A stretch of 60,301 nt of DNA, from assembly GCA_016882195.1 (NCBI GenBank), contig VGLU01000006.1, positions 1 to 60,301 on the forward strand. The letters run 5' to 3'. Made by a program: the position numbers and the translations under genes. Below are positions 9,333 to 52,609 of the stretch, piece after piece; the stretch's first letter is position 1, and each line of letters begins with the position of its first letter. Source of the stretch: Thermoproteota archaeon (GTDB taxonomy: Archaea > Thermoproteota > Methanomethylicia > Methanomethylicales > Methanomethylicaceae). The notes under the pieces were generated by a model. That model was given only the letters and a program-made list of their open reading frames with translations. It made no database searches and was not told where the DNA came from.

Positions 9333-9434
9333 TGGACCGGACGGGATTTGAACCCGTGGCCTCCCGCACTTTGGTGCGGTGGCTGCTCGCCCGCAATGCC
9401 AAGCGGGCGCTCTGCCAGTCTGAGCTACCGGCCC
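9333..9434 (-). tRNA. tRNA-Ala(GGC) with 28-nt intron
   Basis: The acceptor GGGCCGG pairs with CCGGTCC, giving the G3:U70 pair that identifies alanine tRNA. The D-arm is GCTC/GAGC and the anticodon stem CCCGC/GCGGG, with spliced loop TT-GGC-AT. The T-arm is ACGGG/CCCGT. A 28-base intron at 9369-9396 sits at the canonical 37/38 position. It repeats part of the anticodon stem, so an unspliced reading would misplace the variable loop. The mature length is 74 nt and CCA is not encoded. Confidence 0.92.
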
Positions 9435-31603: not shown

Positions 31604-31697
31604 GGGCCTGTAGCTCAGTACGGTAGAGCGGCGGATGTGAAAACAGCCGAGGCTCTTAACCCGTTGGCCAAGGGTTCAAATCCCTTCAGGCCCGCCA
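31604..31697 (+). tRNA. tRNA-Lys(CTT) with 17-nt intron at a non-canonical position
   Basis: The acceptor is GGGCCTG/CAGGCCC with G discriminator and encoded CCA. The D-stem is GCTC/GAGC and the T-arm AAGGG/CCCTT. Removing 31635-31651 joins GCGG to GCTCTTAA-CCCGT, giving stem GCGGG/CCCGT and loop CT-CTT-AA, a lysine anticodon. The intron therefore lies within the 5' strand of the anticodon stem (30/31, or 29/30 because one base is repeated), not at 37/38. The gene is the attachment site of an integrated element, and the last bases are repeated at 33834-33853. Confidence 0.9.
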
Positions 31698-41751: not shown

Positions 41752-42291
41752 TCAGATGAAGATGGCTACCGCGATCACGCTTGTCCATAAGCCGTCCTTA
41801 TTGCCCTCGGCGGATTGAACTGTATGCATTGTCCTGATTATGTGGCCGCTTGCCTTGTAGATTTGTTCCCTCTCCTCCCACGCCTGATTTGGATCGAAGG
41901 GGATGCCGAGGGTCATTGCCAGCATGGTTGCCGCAAGGTCCTCGGCGTACTCCCCGGCGAGCTCCCCCTTCTCACCGAAGGCGTGGTGCTCGGCGAGGTA
42001 GCCGTATATGGTCCTGTCGTGGGGGATGGCAAGACCGATGGCAGCGGATACGAGCCTGTTCGGCTCGTTCGTCTCGTTTCTGGCCATGACGCAGAATATG
42101 ATCTGGCCTGGGCTCAGCTGTTTGAGGCCATCCTCCTTGCTGATTATCTGACAGTTGGGAGGGAAGATGCTCGAGACGTATACTAAATTGAACTTCTCTA
42201 TTCCGGCGTCCCTGAGTGCAAGCTCGAAGGAGGCCAGCCGCTCTTTGTGTACGCCGACCCCTTTTACGAAGAATATCTTTGTTGGAGTCAT
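41752..42291 (-). CDS. pdaD: Pyruvoyl-dependent arginine decarboxylase
   Basis: Makes agmatine from arginine for polyamine and agmatidine synthesis. The proenzyme self-cleaves at the serine pair in [12 protein letters not shown] (about residue 40) to give a pyruvoyl group. [20 protein letters not shown] and [11 protein letters not shown] are active-site and trimer segments. At 179 residues it fits PdaD. ATG 42291 starts [11 protein letters not shown]; the longer frame upstream runs into the TnpB element end. Agmatine is also the source of agmatidine in tRNA-Ile2. Confidence 0.93.
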
Positions 42292-46625: not shown

Positions 46626-46736
46626 TGCCGGGGGCGGGATTCGAACCCGCGATTTCCGGATATCTCATCGGAAGAGCGCCTGGTCCATTTTTCAGATTAT
46701 GAGTCCGGCGCTCTAGCCAGACTGAGCCACCCCGGC
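46626..46736 (-). tRNA. Elongator tRNA-Met(CAT) with 36-nt intron
   Basis: Acceptor GCCGGGG/CCCCGGC with discriminator A. The D-arm is GCTC/GAGC and the T-arm GCGGG-TTCGAAT-CCCGC. The anticodon stem is CCGGA/TCCGG with spliced loop CT-CAT-AA. The acceptor and body match archaeal elongator Met; Ile2 is an unlikely alternative. The 36-base intron at 46662-46697 is at the canonical 37/38 site, with up to 3 bases of ambiguity from a repeated ATC. The mature length is 75 nt. Confidence 0.9.
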
Positions 46737-47600: not shown

Positions 47601-47677
47601 GCCCCAGTAGCTCAGCCCGGTAGAGCGACGGTTTTGTAAACCGTTGGCCAAGGGTTCAAACCCCTTCTGGGGCTCCA
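47601..47677 (+). tRNA. tRNA-Thr(TGT)
   Basis: Acceptor GCCCCAG/CTGGGGC, discriminator T, encoded CCA. The D-arm is GCTC-AGCCCGGTA-GAGC, the anticodon arm ACGGT-TTTGTAA-ACCGT, and the T-arm AAGGG-TTCAAAC-CCCTT. No intron. The 3' 37 bases (47641-47677) recur exactly at 49651-49687, showing that the gene served as an integration site. Confidence 0.96.
47641..47677 (+). repeat. Left copy of a 37-bp direct repeat (tRNA-Thr 3' half)
   Basis: Runs from the 3' strand of the anticodon stem through CCA (CCGTTGGCCAAGGGTTCAAA...). It is identical to 49651-49687 and in the same orientation, so the 2,010-bp unit between copies looks like an element integrated at the tRNA. Confidence 0.8.
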
Positions 47678-47695
47678 TTAATTATGATTCGATCT

Positions 47696-49456
47696 TTAAA
47701 AGGAACCTATAGTCTGTTCAAGTGTTTCTAAGATCCTCCGTATTTTTTTGTACGAAGGAATGATTAATAGGAACAATAGACATATCATAACTGCGAAAGT
47801 AATCAAGTCGGCTGTTGCTCCTTGAAAATACCCCTTGAAAACATTCCTGATTAAGACAGTGACATTGAGTAGCATTACTAAAGAAATGATGGAAATGATC
47901 AGTGTGTAGAAAATATTTTTGACGAGACTTCCAACCTTCTGCCTAGCAGCCTCATTGTAAGTAGATGCTAGCATCCTAGAAAATCGCTCAAGATCCCCTG
48001 TGGCCATTGCGACCTCAATTAATGAGAGAGCCAACATCAAGGTTATGATTAGTGCTCCAATTATTTCGAACAGCTGTTGAGGTATTGACAAGTAATAAAG
48101 AAGTTGAATTGCGAGAGTTCCTGTCATCACTATTACCATGATTGCAACAGTCTTCTTCAAAATAGCAAGTAAGACTTCCCTATAACGCCCCATCGAAAAG
48201 AGTTTTTTGAACGAAGCTATGAACCACGTGGTTACATTTTCTACTTTTTTCTGAGCCTCGTGAGGGATTATCGAGGCTAATTTTGTTGCCACCTTCTCAT
48301 CATGTTCGATCAGTTTTGATGCCATAAATGCAGATATGATTACAACAAAAATAGCCGTAGTAAATATGTTTTGATCCACAATGCCGTAATTGTATGCTTC
48401 CCTAGCTACTATGAACGCTAATTCGCTTATGGGGATCATAAAGATCCCCATCTTTAACGCTTCTCTCAACGTATTCCCGCTGAACCACGCAGCCGAAGTG
48501 GAGGATATGAATTTTATTGATATAATGATAAGTGCAAGAAGCAATATCGTAATGATACTGGCGTAATCTGTGATTTTAGGGGTAGACATTCCAATAGAAG
48601 TAAAGAAGACTATCGCAAAAAGATCTCTCAGCGGCTTCATATTTGTAGTAATTTCTTCCGATGCTGTTGAAGAAGAGACTATAAGTCCTGCTAAAAAGGA
48701 ACCCAATGCAAAGGATACGCCTAAAATTGAACCCAACCAACCATATCCCAACGCAATAGCCAAAGTTATTATGATGCTTATTTCCGTCTCCTTGGTTTTA
48801 TTCACGAAATTCAAAATTTTTGGAAGAACCAAGACTCCGATTACCAGCATTACAAGAACCATAAGGACAACTTCAGATATTGATAACATTGCTTCTAGAA
48901 AATTAAATTGCCCGAGTTGGGAGAAAGCAGGTATGAGCGATATTCCACATATTACTACGAAGTCTTCAATGGTAGCAACAATAAAGATTATGATGGAAGA
49001 CCGCTGATTCAATATTCCCTTTCCCTCAAGGAATTTGAATGCCATTACTGTGCTCGTATTCACCGCTATTAAAAACAACACGACTATTGTTAATGGTCGC
49101 ATGCCTGCCGATAACCCGACAAGGGTCGAAAGGATCATTATGAATAATAATTCAAGACCTGAAATTAGCAGTATATTTTGCCCATAGCGCTTTAGAAGCC
49201 CCAATTTTGCTGTTAATCCGATTTGAAAGGATATGAGGGCTATTCCTATCTCGCTGAATAGCTTAACCGTATCAGAATTTGGATCGACAAGACTAAGCCC
49301 AGGACCTATTACTAGACCTGCGATTATATATCCTGCTATAGGAGCGAACCCTAGTTTTCTTAGAGGGACTGCTATCGCAACGGCTAGAAGAAGAAGCAGA
49401 ATAAATGTTAGGATGACGTCCATTTTTTTATCAAACCGTTTTCCAAAAACAAACAT
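47696..49456 (-). CDS. CPA2-type cation:proton antiporter (Kef/NapA-like)
   Basis: A membrane protein of 586 residues. Residues 12-390 form a 12-helix monovalent cation:proton antiporter-2 domain: LRKLGFAPIAGYIIAGLVIG, EIGIALISFQIGL, FLIAVNTSTVMAFKFLE, GSFLAGLIVSS and FFTSIGMS. The last 190 residues hold four more helices and replace the TrkA-N/RCK regulatory domain of KefB. The role would be K+ or Na+ exchange for protons. It is AT-rich relative to flanking core genes and is the only gene between the two tRNA-Thr repeats, which points to transfer. Confidence 0.85.
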   Translation of the reverse strand: MFVFGKRFDKKMDVILTFILLLLLAVAIAVPLRKLGFAPIAGYIIAGLVIGPGLSLVDPNSDTVKLFSEIGIALISFQIGLTAKLGLLKRYGQNILLISGLELLFIMILSTLVGLSAGMRPLTIVVLFLIAVNTSTVMAFKFLEGKGILNQRSSIIIFIVATIEDFVVICGISLIPAFSQLGQFNFLEAMLSISEVVLMVLVMLVIGVLVLPKILNFVNKTKETEISIIITLAIALGYGWLGSILGVSFALGSFLAGLIVSSSTASEEITTNMKPLRDLFAIVFFTSIGMSTPKITDYASIITILLLALIIISIKFISSTSAAWFSGNTLREALKMGIFMIPISELAFIVAREAYNYGIVDQNIFTTAIFVVIISAFMASKLIEHDEKVATKLASIIPHEAQKKVENVTTWFIASFKKLFSMGRYREVLLAILKKTVAIMVIVMTGTLAIQLLYYLSIPQQLFEIIGALIITLMLALSLIEVAMATGDLERFSRMLASTYNEAARQKVGSLVKNIFYTLIISIISLVMLLNVTVLIRNVFKGYFQGATADLITFAVMICLLFLLIIPSYKKIRRILETLEQTIGSF

Positions 49457-49935
49457 CTTTAATAAAGTTTTTCAAAGCGAAAAATGCTGAATGCAGATGT
49501 TTCCGCAGTTTAATAACTATCATACTATTCTTTCATCATTAGATATTGATCGATATGTTCTTAGATACTACCCAATATTGTAGCAAAATTATTTTTGTAA
49601 CTTTCACTTCTCTAACGGTTTTTGAATCTTTCGGGTGAATTAACTTAAACCCGTTGGCCAAGGGTTCAAACCCCTTCTGGGGCTCCACGAACATTCTTTG
49701 AGTTGATTACCCCGGCTTGAGCATACGGTCTTGAAACTCGGAACGGGCCGATGTTGCCCCACATCATAGCAAAAAGCTGGAAGAGATAGACGGTTGATTC
49801 GATGGTTGAATGCCACCAATGCGTTCGGCACTTACCATAAGAGACCATAGATGTTAACTGGATATGGTAGCGAAGCATTGAAACGATCGGTCGTATGAAA
49901 ACCATATTATTTGCAGTAGCCCTCGGTTTAGTTCT
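49457..49935. other. AT-rich gap with the right tRNA-Thr repeat; no gene seen
   Basis: Contains the upstream region of the antiporter (49457-49640) and the right repeat (49651-49687). After that come about 250 bases holding only short frames without family resemblance. No integrase fragment was found on either side of the repeat. Confidence 0.5.
49651..49687 (+). repeat. Right copy of the 37-bp tRNA-Thr repeat
   Basis: Exact copy of 47641-47677 without the 5' half of the tRNA. It is preceded by TTAACTTAAAC, which does not match tRNA-Thr. This is the att site left at the distal end of the inserted unit. Confidence 0.8.
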
Positions 49936-51063
49936 TCAATTTTTGCGTTCCTTTGAACTATCCTTTTTTCGTATTTTCTTAATCCCGCGCAACGTGTCAT
50001 CATTCCATAAGAATTTTAGCCTTGGACGCCCATCGTGGATCCCTTTCTGCAGTATGTAGCCGACGATGAGGGGGAGTATAATCGTAGCCTCACCATAAAC
50101 GGTGGATCTATGCGCTTTAGTTGAGACTTTGCCCCACGATTTTGCTTCGTCCAGAGTGCTTCCAGAAAGGCCGCCCCATTGAGGAGAGGCTGTGGTGATT
50201 TGAAATGCGTAGGTATGCCCCTTGGTATAGTCGAACATGATCGCGGCGTCATTTATGTAGTTCTTTGGAACGCCCCCTCCTACGTATATGGCCCCAGTCT
50301 TCTTTGATGTCAGTACTATTTGCCCTATTTCGTAGTTATCTTTTATAGTGTCTATCATTACCGGCGAAACTTTATTCGCCTTTGCACTCCTGTAATGAAG
50401 CACAGCACCTATGCCTACCGAACTATCGGCAATCGCAGGACAGTATACGGGGACATCGTACCTGTATGCGTTGTAGAGGACGGAGTGTTCGTCATTGAGG
50501 GTTGATCCGAGTTTATAGAAGAACTCCCTAGTTGAGTATCTCTTTGGTTCCAAAGTATTGCAAAAATTCGCTATGTATTCGTCGCATTCAACGAAGCCAA
50601 TTTCGTCCACGTAGGTATCATATATGCGGTTTATGTAAAGGGCGTGCAGCTTTGAGTCGTCTGCATAGGGAGACCCTCTGGAGTGGGCATAGCCCTTTGC
50701 GGCATAGTAATCTTGGTAAAGAATTGCACCGGTTGAGACGACGACATCAACTAAGCCCTCGGAGATCATATCGCTAAGAACTTTCCTAAGACCGCCTGCG
50801 ATAAGAGCCCCAGAAATACCGAGCATCACGGTGGGCCTATCCTTGTCTAACAGCATGCTTTCATAGACTTTGGCGCACTCTGCCAACTTTCTTGACTGAA
50901 GCCCACATTGACCCCAAGAGTCGACCAAGTCTTTTAGTGTAGTCACTTCTGTAATATTGACTGGTCGTATTTTTTCTCGCAATAAGGAGGCTCGTTTCTT
51001 TTCGTTCTTAATGGAACTATTCTTGAACAGGTGTATACTTTTATTCTTGTTTTTGCTGTACAC
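49936..51063 (-). CDS. dys: Deoxyhypusine synthase
   Basis: Transfers the aminobutyl group of spermidine to a lysine of aIF5A. The 375-residue protein has DLVDSWGQCGLQSRKLAECA, the NAD-binding VVVSTGAILYQDYYAAKG, the VGGGVPKNYIND motif and the catalytic lysine in LDEAKSWGKVSTKA. It is a divergent member: the canonical TAxEFDGSDSGA segment reads TTASPQWGGLSGST, so a homospermidine-synthase-like or substrate-shifted enzyme is possible. GTG 51063 has GAGGTGGG upstream. A 160-base structured leader precedes it. Confidence 0.87.
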   Translation of the reverse strand: MYSKNKNKSIHLFKNSSIKNEKKRASLLREKIRPVNITEVTTLKDLVDSWGQCGLQSRKLAECAKVYESMLLDKDRPTVMLGISGALIAGGLRKVLSDMISEGLVDVVVSTGAILYQDYYAAKGYAHSRGSPYADDSKLHALYINRIYDTYVDEIGFVECDEYIANFCNTLEPKRYSTREFFYKLGSTLNDEHSVLYNAYRYDVPVYCPAIADSSVGIGAVLHYRSAKANKVSPVMIDTIKDNYEIGQIVLTSKKTGAIYVGGGVPKNYINDAAIMFDYTKGHTYAFQITTASPQWGGLSGSTLDEAKSWGKVSTKAHRSTVYGEATIILPLIVGYILQKGIHDGRPRLKFLWNDDTLRGIKKIRKKDSSKERKN

Positions 51064-51223
51064 ATTATCCCACCTCTTGAGCCGGCATCCTGGGAAAGCA
51101 GCGGGGAAGTTGATGGTTTACCCCGATAGTGGGTTGCCTGTACTACCACCGTCGTCTGTGGCAGGCATGACGACACGCGCAGGTGCGGATGTATGCAAGT
51201 GCGACTATGTTTCCCAGTATGCG
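51064..51223 (-). promoter_or_regulatory. Long structured 5' leader of deoxyhypusine synthase, possible riboswitch
   Basis: From a TATA box at 51246-51253, transcription should begin near 51223. The RNA then contains a closing helix CUGGGAAA (51217-51210) with UUUCCCAG (51097-51090). Inside are hairpins UGCCUG/CAGGCA stacked on CCAC/GUGG (51167-51135) and CGGGG/CCCCG (51125-51102). The hairpin loop carries GACGAC (51156-51151), complementary to GUCGUC (51174-51169) just upstream, giving a pseudoknot or an alternative hairpin. CCCAC (51133-51129) can pair with GUGGG of the ribosome binding site (51073-51069). No known riboswitch class was recognised. A free-standing ncRNA is the alternative. 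Confidence 0.5.
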
Positions 51224-51245
51224 TTATAATTTTGGAACAATCATC

Positions 51246-51253
51246 ATTTATAA
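51246..51253 (-). promoter_or_regulatory. TATA box upstream of the deoxyhypusine synthase leader
   Basis: The minus strand reads AACCCTTATAAATGATG. TTATAAAT is a strong archaeal TATA box and lies 183 bases before the GTG start, which predicts a long leader in an organism whose other leaders look short. Confidence 0.5.
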
Positions 51254-51724: not shown

Positions 51725-52609
51725 TCAATATAATGGATAGTTGTAGATTACATACTCGTAAATGCGCCCCCTGCCATCGCCCTTGCAGGAGATCTGCCTC
51801 GCCGCCAAAGTCTTAAGGATGTTACCACGGTCGATGTATTCCTTGTACAAATCATCGATGAGTGGATTGTATGAGTTGCTTAAGAGGAGTTTGCAGCCCC
51901 TTTTGTCGAGGGTTTTAAACGTTTCAGCCAACTTGCGTTGGTCTTCCTCTGTGAACGAGCTTGGGGTGTACTGGGTGAACCACGATGTCGCGCTTACGGG
52001 TTGATAGGGGGGATCGAGGTAGACAAAGTCGTTTTCTTTGGCGGCCGCGACGGCAAGGTCGTAGCCACAACACCTCAGCGTTATCCTGCTGTCGCTCAAT
52101 GCCTTGCTGACTTTCCGTATGTTCCCCTCGTCGTATATTCGAGGGTTCTCGTACCTCCCCCAAGGGACGTTGAACTCGCCATCTGAATTTACCCGATAGA
52201 GCCCGTTGTAACAGGTCTTGTTGAGGTACAGCAGGAGGGCCGCCTTCGCCACGTCCCCATCCAAACCGGTTCTCAGCCGGATCTTGTTGAACTTTGGCCT
52301 AGCGACCTCGTAGTAGAACTCCTTCTCGCTGGCGTGTTCCTGTAGCAACTCCAGCTCGGTCAGCAGGGCCTCCGTGTTGTCCCTTATCGCCACGTAGCAG
52401 TTCATGAGATCCTTATTGGCGTCGGAGAGGATTGCCCTCCGGATTCTCCCCATGGAATAGAGCTTAAAGAACAACGCACCCCCGCCCAAGAAGGGCTCAT
52501 AATATGTGCCAAAGGTCTGAGGGGCGCATTTGATCAGCACGTTCAGGAGTTGCGACTTTCCGCCCGCCCATTTTATGAAGGGGGAAGGACCAATAGGCAC
52601 TTGAACCAC
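51725..52609 (-). CDS. Adenine-specific DNA methyltransferase, D12/Dam class
   Basis: N6-adenine methyltransferase of 294 residues. The order of motifs is that of the Dam/D12 class: SPFIKWAGGKSQLL (SAM-binding), YYEPFLGGGALFF, ILSDANKDLMNCYVAI and the catalytic VYLDPPYQP near residue 197. No restriction endonuclease is adjacent, so it may be a solitary methylase or a piece of a mobile restriction-modification set. The target (GATC or another) cannot be read. Confidence 0.9.
   Translation of the reverse strand: MVQVPIGPSPFIKWAGGKSQLLNVLIKCAPQTFGTYYEPFLGGGALFFKLYSMGRIRRAILSDANKDLMNCYVAIRDNTEALLTELELLQEHASEKEFYYEVARPKFNKIRLRTGLDGDVAKAALLLYLNKTCYNGLYRVNSDGEFNVPWGRYENPRIYDEGNIRKVSKALSDSRITLRCCGYDLAVAAAKENDFVYLDPPYQPVSATSWFTQYTPSSFTEEDQRKLAETFKTLDKRGCKLLLSNSYNPLIDDLYKEYIDRGNILKTLAARQISCKGDGRGRIYEYVIYNYPLY

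What the first reader, a model, noticed from the sequence alone, without database searches (positions are those of the whole stretch)
51064..51253. Pseudoknot-capable 160-nt leader before deoxyhypusine synthase
Seen: TATA box TTATAAAT at 51246-51253 on the minus strand, 183 bases from the GTG. An 8-bp perfect closing helix (51217-51210 with 51097-51090) encloses two hairpins. Loop GACGAC (51156-51151) complements GUCGUC (51174-51169), making either a pseudoknot or a competing hairpin. CCCAC (51133-51129) complements GUGGG of the ribosome binding site. Inference: an archaeal riboswitch or thermosensor on a polyamine-dependent enzyme, perhaps sensing spermidine or agmatine-derived metabolites. 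I matched it to no known riboswitch class. The alternative is an unrelated ncRNA gene at this place.
Basis: partly seen in the sequence, partly recalled or inferred. Interest (0 to 1): 0.78.

Follow-up and report, generated by a model that had tools for sequence, protein, structure and literature searches.

The report
Structured leader before polyamine-enzyme gene
In three genera of methanogen-related archaea (Methanomethylicales), one duplicated copy of a polyamine-enzyme gene carries a long RNA leader whose first bases fold back to just before the gene's start, which suggests but does not prove a control element; nothing shows that it senses polyamines.

Summary
On its own the window leader is unremarkable (fold z -0.10; Rfam silent). 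What lifts it above chance is comparison. The gene is not the genome's canonical deoxyhypusine synthase (that copy is on another contig) but a DS-family paralog. Orthologs of this paralog occur in only two other held genomes (Ca. Methanomethylicus mesodigestus; Ca. Methanosuratincola), form a clade with it, and both also have a TATA box about 31 nt before a conserved GCAU, a 160-175-nt leader and a returning GRUGC just before an identical ribosome site. The sister paralog has its TATA about 30 nt before its ribosome site. The closing helix is re-formed with different inner sequences (combined shuffle P about 1e-4; two compensatory pairs). The ~107-nt interior is not alignable, so the pseudoknot and CCCAC:GUGGG pairing are unsupported and a conserved ligand pocket is unlikely. 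The same GCAU can instead pair with the start codon in all three (P about 3e-4), a possible two-state switch. Best reading: a lineage-specific structured leader controlling translation start. Polyamine sensing is untested; the thermosensor idea gets no support. Only three sequences exist in the data held.

The parts
51246..51253 (-). TATA box of the leader transcript
   Evidence: Sequence; a TATA-like box at the same distance (first base to GCAU 32/30/31 nt) in both orthologs. Transcription start itself not measured.
51219..51222 (-). Conserved GCAU at the predicted 5' end: outer closing-helix strand, and alternative partner of the start codon
   Evidence: GCAU(A/C/C) in all three leaders while the interior is not alignable.
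51210..51217 (-). Inner closing helix (P1), 5' strand CUGGGAAA
   Evidence: pairing position kept with different sequence in L039 and L040.
51098..51209 (-).
   Evidence: Pairwise global alignment against shuffles P 0.58, 0.86, 0.03.
51090..51097 (-). Inner closing helix (P1), 3' strand UUUCCCAG
51085..51089 (-). GAUGC, returning outer closing-helix strand (GRUGC in all three), 7-11 nt before AGAGGTG
51068..51079 (-). CAAGAGGTGGGA block with Shine-Dalgarno GAGGTG (51076-51071)
   Evidence: Identical in the three orthologs; AGAGGTGGGAWRATGTG is found without mismatch only at these three places in 22 family genomes.
51061..51066 (-). AATGTG: GTG start of the gene (51063-51061) overlapping an out-of-frame ATG (51065-51063); start-side partner of the 5' GCAU
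   Evidence: ATGTG in all three; pairing.
49936..51063 (-). DS-family (PF01916) paralog, 375 aa; not the genome's canonical deoxyhypusine synthase

Best explanation
The 51222-51064 stretch (minus strand) is the 5' leader of the mRNA of a duplicated DS-family polyamine-type enzyme. The predicted RNA starts at or just before GCAU; its 5' end folds back about 130 nt downstream to form a long closing helix ending 7-11 nt before the ribosome binding site, with a fast-evolving interior. Inferred mechanism: the 5' GCAU(C) strand has two exclusive partners, GRUGC before the SD (start codon free) or the AUGUG at the start codon (start closed), so the leader sets or switches translation initiation of this paralog, while the short-leader sister paralog lacks this control. 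Shown by computation: promoter geometry, closing helix, restriction to one paralog clade. Inferred: transcription start, two-state behaviour, regulation. Unknown: the signal, if any.
For: Three orthologs only (window, L039, L040), a clade with 92/93 support apart from 20 short-leader copies. TATA-to-GCAU spacing 32/30/31 nt; GCAU to end of GTG 162/172/177 nt; the sister paralog mostly has its TATA roughly 30 nt before its SD (read by eye). Closing helix in the MFE of all three GCAU-to-SD segments; end duplex P 0.079, 0.006, 0.002, Fisher about 1e-4, inner helix alone about 5e-4. Sequence changes keep pairing: GGGCGCG:CGCGCCC in L039, GAGCGCA:UGCGCUC in L040 (two compensatory pairs), CUGGGAAA:UUUCCCAG in the window. 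5'-end/start-codon pairing P 0.031, 0.116, 0.001, Fisher about 3e-4, in 93-100% of ensemble samples with a few nt of coding sequence included; one compensatory A-U/U-A change between L039 and L040 and one A-U/C-G between window and L040. No conserved uORF inside the leader.
Against: Only three sequences; GCAU, GRUGC and AUGUG may be shared by descent, so the tests are not independent. In the window itself the structure is hardly above chance. Start-codon pairing is lost in the window when about 30 nt of coding sequence are included, and two of its pairs are mismatched there. Interior not conserved. No RNA data.
Confidence: 0.5

Rival explanations
1. Ligand-sensing riboswitch for a polyamine or agmatine derivative.
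For: The gene belongs to a family whose members use spermidine, putrescine or agmatine (PMC10981699 for an agmatine-coupling member); a pyruvoyl arginine decarboxylase gene lies in the same window at 41755-42288 and about 1 kb from the ortholog in G021. Spermidine riboswitches exist in bacteria (PMC10853860).
Against: No conserved core in ~107 nt between genera whose proteins are 64-66% identical; no Rfam match, including the SAM-I family from which the bacterial spermidine riboswitch derives.
Confidence: 0.12
2. RNA thermosensor that opens the SD on heating.
For: SD is partly paired at 37 C in all three.
Against: Predicted SD unpaired probability hardly moves from 37 to 70 C in the window (0.51 to 0.56) and in L040 (0.18 to 0.18); only L039 rises, 0.31 to 0.51.
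Confidence: 0.04
3. Independent small RNA gene that happens to sit before the gene.
For: A closed RNA with paired ends would suit a free sRNA.
Against: No U-run between helix and SD; spacing to the SD conserved; present only with this paralog; no Rfam match.
Confidence: 0.08
4. Chance or a DNA-level element: a long leader left by promoter displacement, with a coincidental helix; GCAU is a promoter initiator or a DNA operator half-site.
For: Window leader alone does not beat shuffles; outer arms GCATC/GRTGC are a sequence-conserved inverted repeat, as a looping operator would be; a pattern of the outer architecture finds mostly unrelated places, only about twice as many as its control.
Against: The inner helix re-forms with different sequences in each genus; length and spacing kept in three genera.
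Confidence: 0.26

Closest known systems
Spermidine riboswitch (SAM-I variant, bacteria; PMC10853860)
   Same: Leader upstream of polyamine genes
   Different: No SAM-I match here (Rfam silent), no terminator, no conserved core
Archaeal and bacterial ribosomal-protein leader candidates (PMC7247131)
   Same: Lineage-restricted structured 5' leaders found by comparison
   Different: Downstream gene is a metabolic enzyme; no known protein ligand
Translation control by fold-back of upstream bases onto the start codon (general mechanism, own knowledge)
   Same: 5' bases complementary to the start codon region, with an alternative partner
   Different: Here predicted only, from three sequences, in an archaeon

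Membership tests
Known Rfam RNA family | Covariance-model score above the gathering cut-off | tested here: not met
   only chance-level hits, different in each leader
Metabolite riboswitch | Conserved aptamer core across homologs | tested here: not met
   interior not alignable between genera
Metabolite riboswitch | Ligand-dependent change of structure or expression | not testable with these tools
   Needs in-line probing or reporters
RNA thermosensor | SD released over a physiological temperature range | tested here: inconclusive
   flat in two of three leaders; computed only
Structured cis-regulatory leader | Helix kept by compensatory changes in homologs | tested here: met
   with three sequences only
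Structured cis-regulatory leader | Leader and gene on one transcript | not testable with these tools
   No RNA data; promoter geometry fits
Deoxyhypusine synthase (downstream gene) | Passes a curated DHS model | tested here: not met
   best PRK00805 336.4 bits against a cut-off of 434; TIGR00321 284.3 against 304.25; the G000:C1 copy passes PRK01221 (441.5 against 350). It does pass Pfam's broad DS family
1,9-bis(guanidino)-5-aza-nonane (caldomycin-type) synthase | Passes NF002699 | tested here: not met
   304.1 bits against 500

The most novel reading that the evidence does not exclude
A new class of archaeal translational switch in which the transcript's own 5' end alternates between a partner before the ribosome site and the start codon, controlling a polyamine enzyme, possibly in response to its product.
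Probability: 0.12. Interest if true: 0.75.

Novelty: new member of a known kind. Interest (0 to 1): 0.42.

Why it matters
Few archaeal cis-regulatory RNAs are known, and my searches of the papers held turned up none for polyamine genes in archaea. A leader kept on only one of two paralogs, with the short-leader sister acting as a natural control, makes a clean test of RNA control in a little-studied lineage.

Tried and rejected
Rfam at gathering and permissive thresholds: nothing. BLASTN of the leader in 60 relatives: the only places that match at the orthologous position are the SD ends of the two orthologs. Search for more orthologs in the family (22 genomes), class (40), genome contigs and viral contigs: none beyond the two; L010/L039 and L011/L040 are the same contigs, counted once. 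uORFs: none conserved inside the leader. Leu at the human Asp316 position as a sign of an agmatine enzyme: dropped, because a solved archaeal enzyme annotated as probable deoxyhypusine synthase (8put) has it too. Architecture pattern in three genomes: 12 places, of which 3 are the known leaders, against 4 for the control pattern; the others were not examined one by one. A covariance model was not built: three sequences with an unalignable interior would carry little information.

Full report
What was checked. All coordinates in the finding are right on the minus strand. The closing helix is longer than reported: GCAU (51222-51219) pairs with AUGC (51088-51085) outside the 8-bp CUGGGAAA:UUUCCCAG, with one A/G mismatch between. 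Taken alone the window leader is not special: MFE z -0.10 for 51225-51061, z -1.66 for the GCAU-to-SD part, and 15% of GC-matched upstream regions have an end duplex as strong. Rfam gives nothing.

Where it comes from and what the gene is. The window is one contig of a 1.45-Mb genome; its nearest named relatives in genome contigs are Ca. Methanomethylicus mesodigestus (L039) and Ca. Methanosuratincola (L040). The genome has three PF01916-type genes. The copy on C1 passes NCBIfam's deoxyhypusine synthase model; the window copy and the C3 copy pass none, scoring below cut-off for deoxyhypusine synthase and for 1,9-bis(guanidino)-5-aza-nonane synthase. They keep the catalytic-lysine motif SWGK. 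So the gene is best called a DS-family paralog, probably a polyamine-coupling enzyme in the manner of the agmatine-coupling enzyme described in Thermus (PMC10981699); its substrate is not shown.

The comparison. Of 22 genomes held for the family, 21 carry a DS paralog of this kind and only three carry the window type besides it. The class has only 40 held genomes and gave no further case. The three window-type copies form a clade (92/93) beside 20 C3-type copies (98/98) (the C3-type copy of G013 was left out of the tree because its frame was read wrongly in that script). C3-type genes, read by eye, mostly have a TTTAAAT-like box about 30 nt before the SD, that is, almost no leader. The three window-type genes have a TATA-like box, then 30-32 nt to a GCAU, then 162-177 nt to the end of the GTG, with CAAGAGGTGGGA identical. 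AGAGGTGGGAWRATGTG occurs without mismatch nowhere else in 22 genomes.

The helix. In all three the 5' end and the stretch before the SD pair in the MFE structure of the GCAU-to-SD segment; duplex P against dinucleotide shuffles 0.079, 0.006, 0.002, Fisher about 1e-4. The inner part differs in sequence: CUGGGAAA:UUUCCCAG (window), GGGCGCG:CGCGCCC (L039), GAGCGCA:UGCGCUC (L040), with two compensatory pairs between the last two; inner helix alone Fisher about 5e-4. The outer GCAUC:GRUGC has one one-sided change (A to G, keeping a U-G pair) and one mismatch in the window. The pair tallies rest on hand-aligned helix arms, not on an automatic alignment.

A possible switch. With only a few nt of coding sequence after the GTG, 93-100% of ensemble samples put the 5' GCAU on the start codon AUGUG instead; the pairing beats shuffles in the window and L040 but not in L039 (0.031, 0.001; 0.116). 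It shows A-U/U-A and A-U/C-G exchanges, but also mismatches in the window and L039. With about 30 nt more of coding sequence it vanishes in the window and stays in L039 and L040. This is a lead found after the fact, not a demonstration.

Rivals. A ligand riboswitch is unlikely given the unconserved interior, though not excluded. The thermosensor is not supported by computed SD opening. A separate ncRNA lacks a terminator and has a fixed spacing to the SD. Chance or a DNA-level element remains a serious rival because there are only three sequences.

Verdict. Observation confirmed; interpretation partly supported; the defensible claim is a lineage-specific structured leader on one paralog, likely acting on translation initiation. 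Interest is moderate.

Noticed in passing
window 47638-47677 and 49648-49687 (+): The last 40 bases of tRNA-Thr(TGT) (47601-47677) are repeated at 98% identity 2.0 kb downstream, flanking the sodium/proton antiporter gene 47696-49456: looks like attachment-site copies left by an integration, though no integrase was seen between them.
   Followed up: partly
window 51061-51065 (-), and the same place in L039 and L040: The GTG start overlaps an out-of-frame ATG (ATGTG) in all three orthologs, with SD spacing 7 and 5; the ATG frame runs 40, 47 and 23 codons. Possible competition between starts.
   Followed up: partly
window 49936-51063; G000 C3:49851-50861; C1:217232-218173: Three DS-family genes in one 1.45-Mb genome, two of them 69% identical.
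   Followed up: yes
window 41755-42288 (-): Pyruvoyl-dependent arginine decarboxylase (PF01862), the agmatine maker, in the same window; about 1 kb from the ortholog of the leader gene in G021.
   Followed up: partly
window 46626-46736 and 9333-9434 (-): tRNA genes found by Rfam but missed by ARAGORN, 102-111 bases long, so probably with introns; the tRNA at 31604-31697 gets an odd 4-base anticodon from ARAGORN.
   Followed up: no
window 51725-52609 (-): D12-class adenine DNA methyltransferase (PF02086) next door; no restriction gene was looked for.
   Followed up: no
window 49936-51063 (-), residues 294-301 of the protein: The motif PQWGGLSG has Trp where the two solved archaeal enzymes aligned have Asp (DGSLSG), in both non-canonical paralogs; may mark a change of substrate.
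   Followed up: partly
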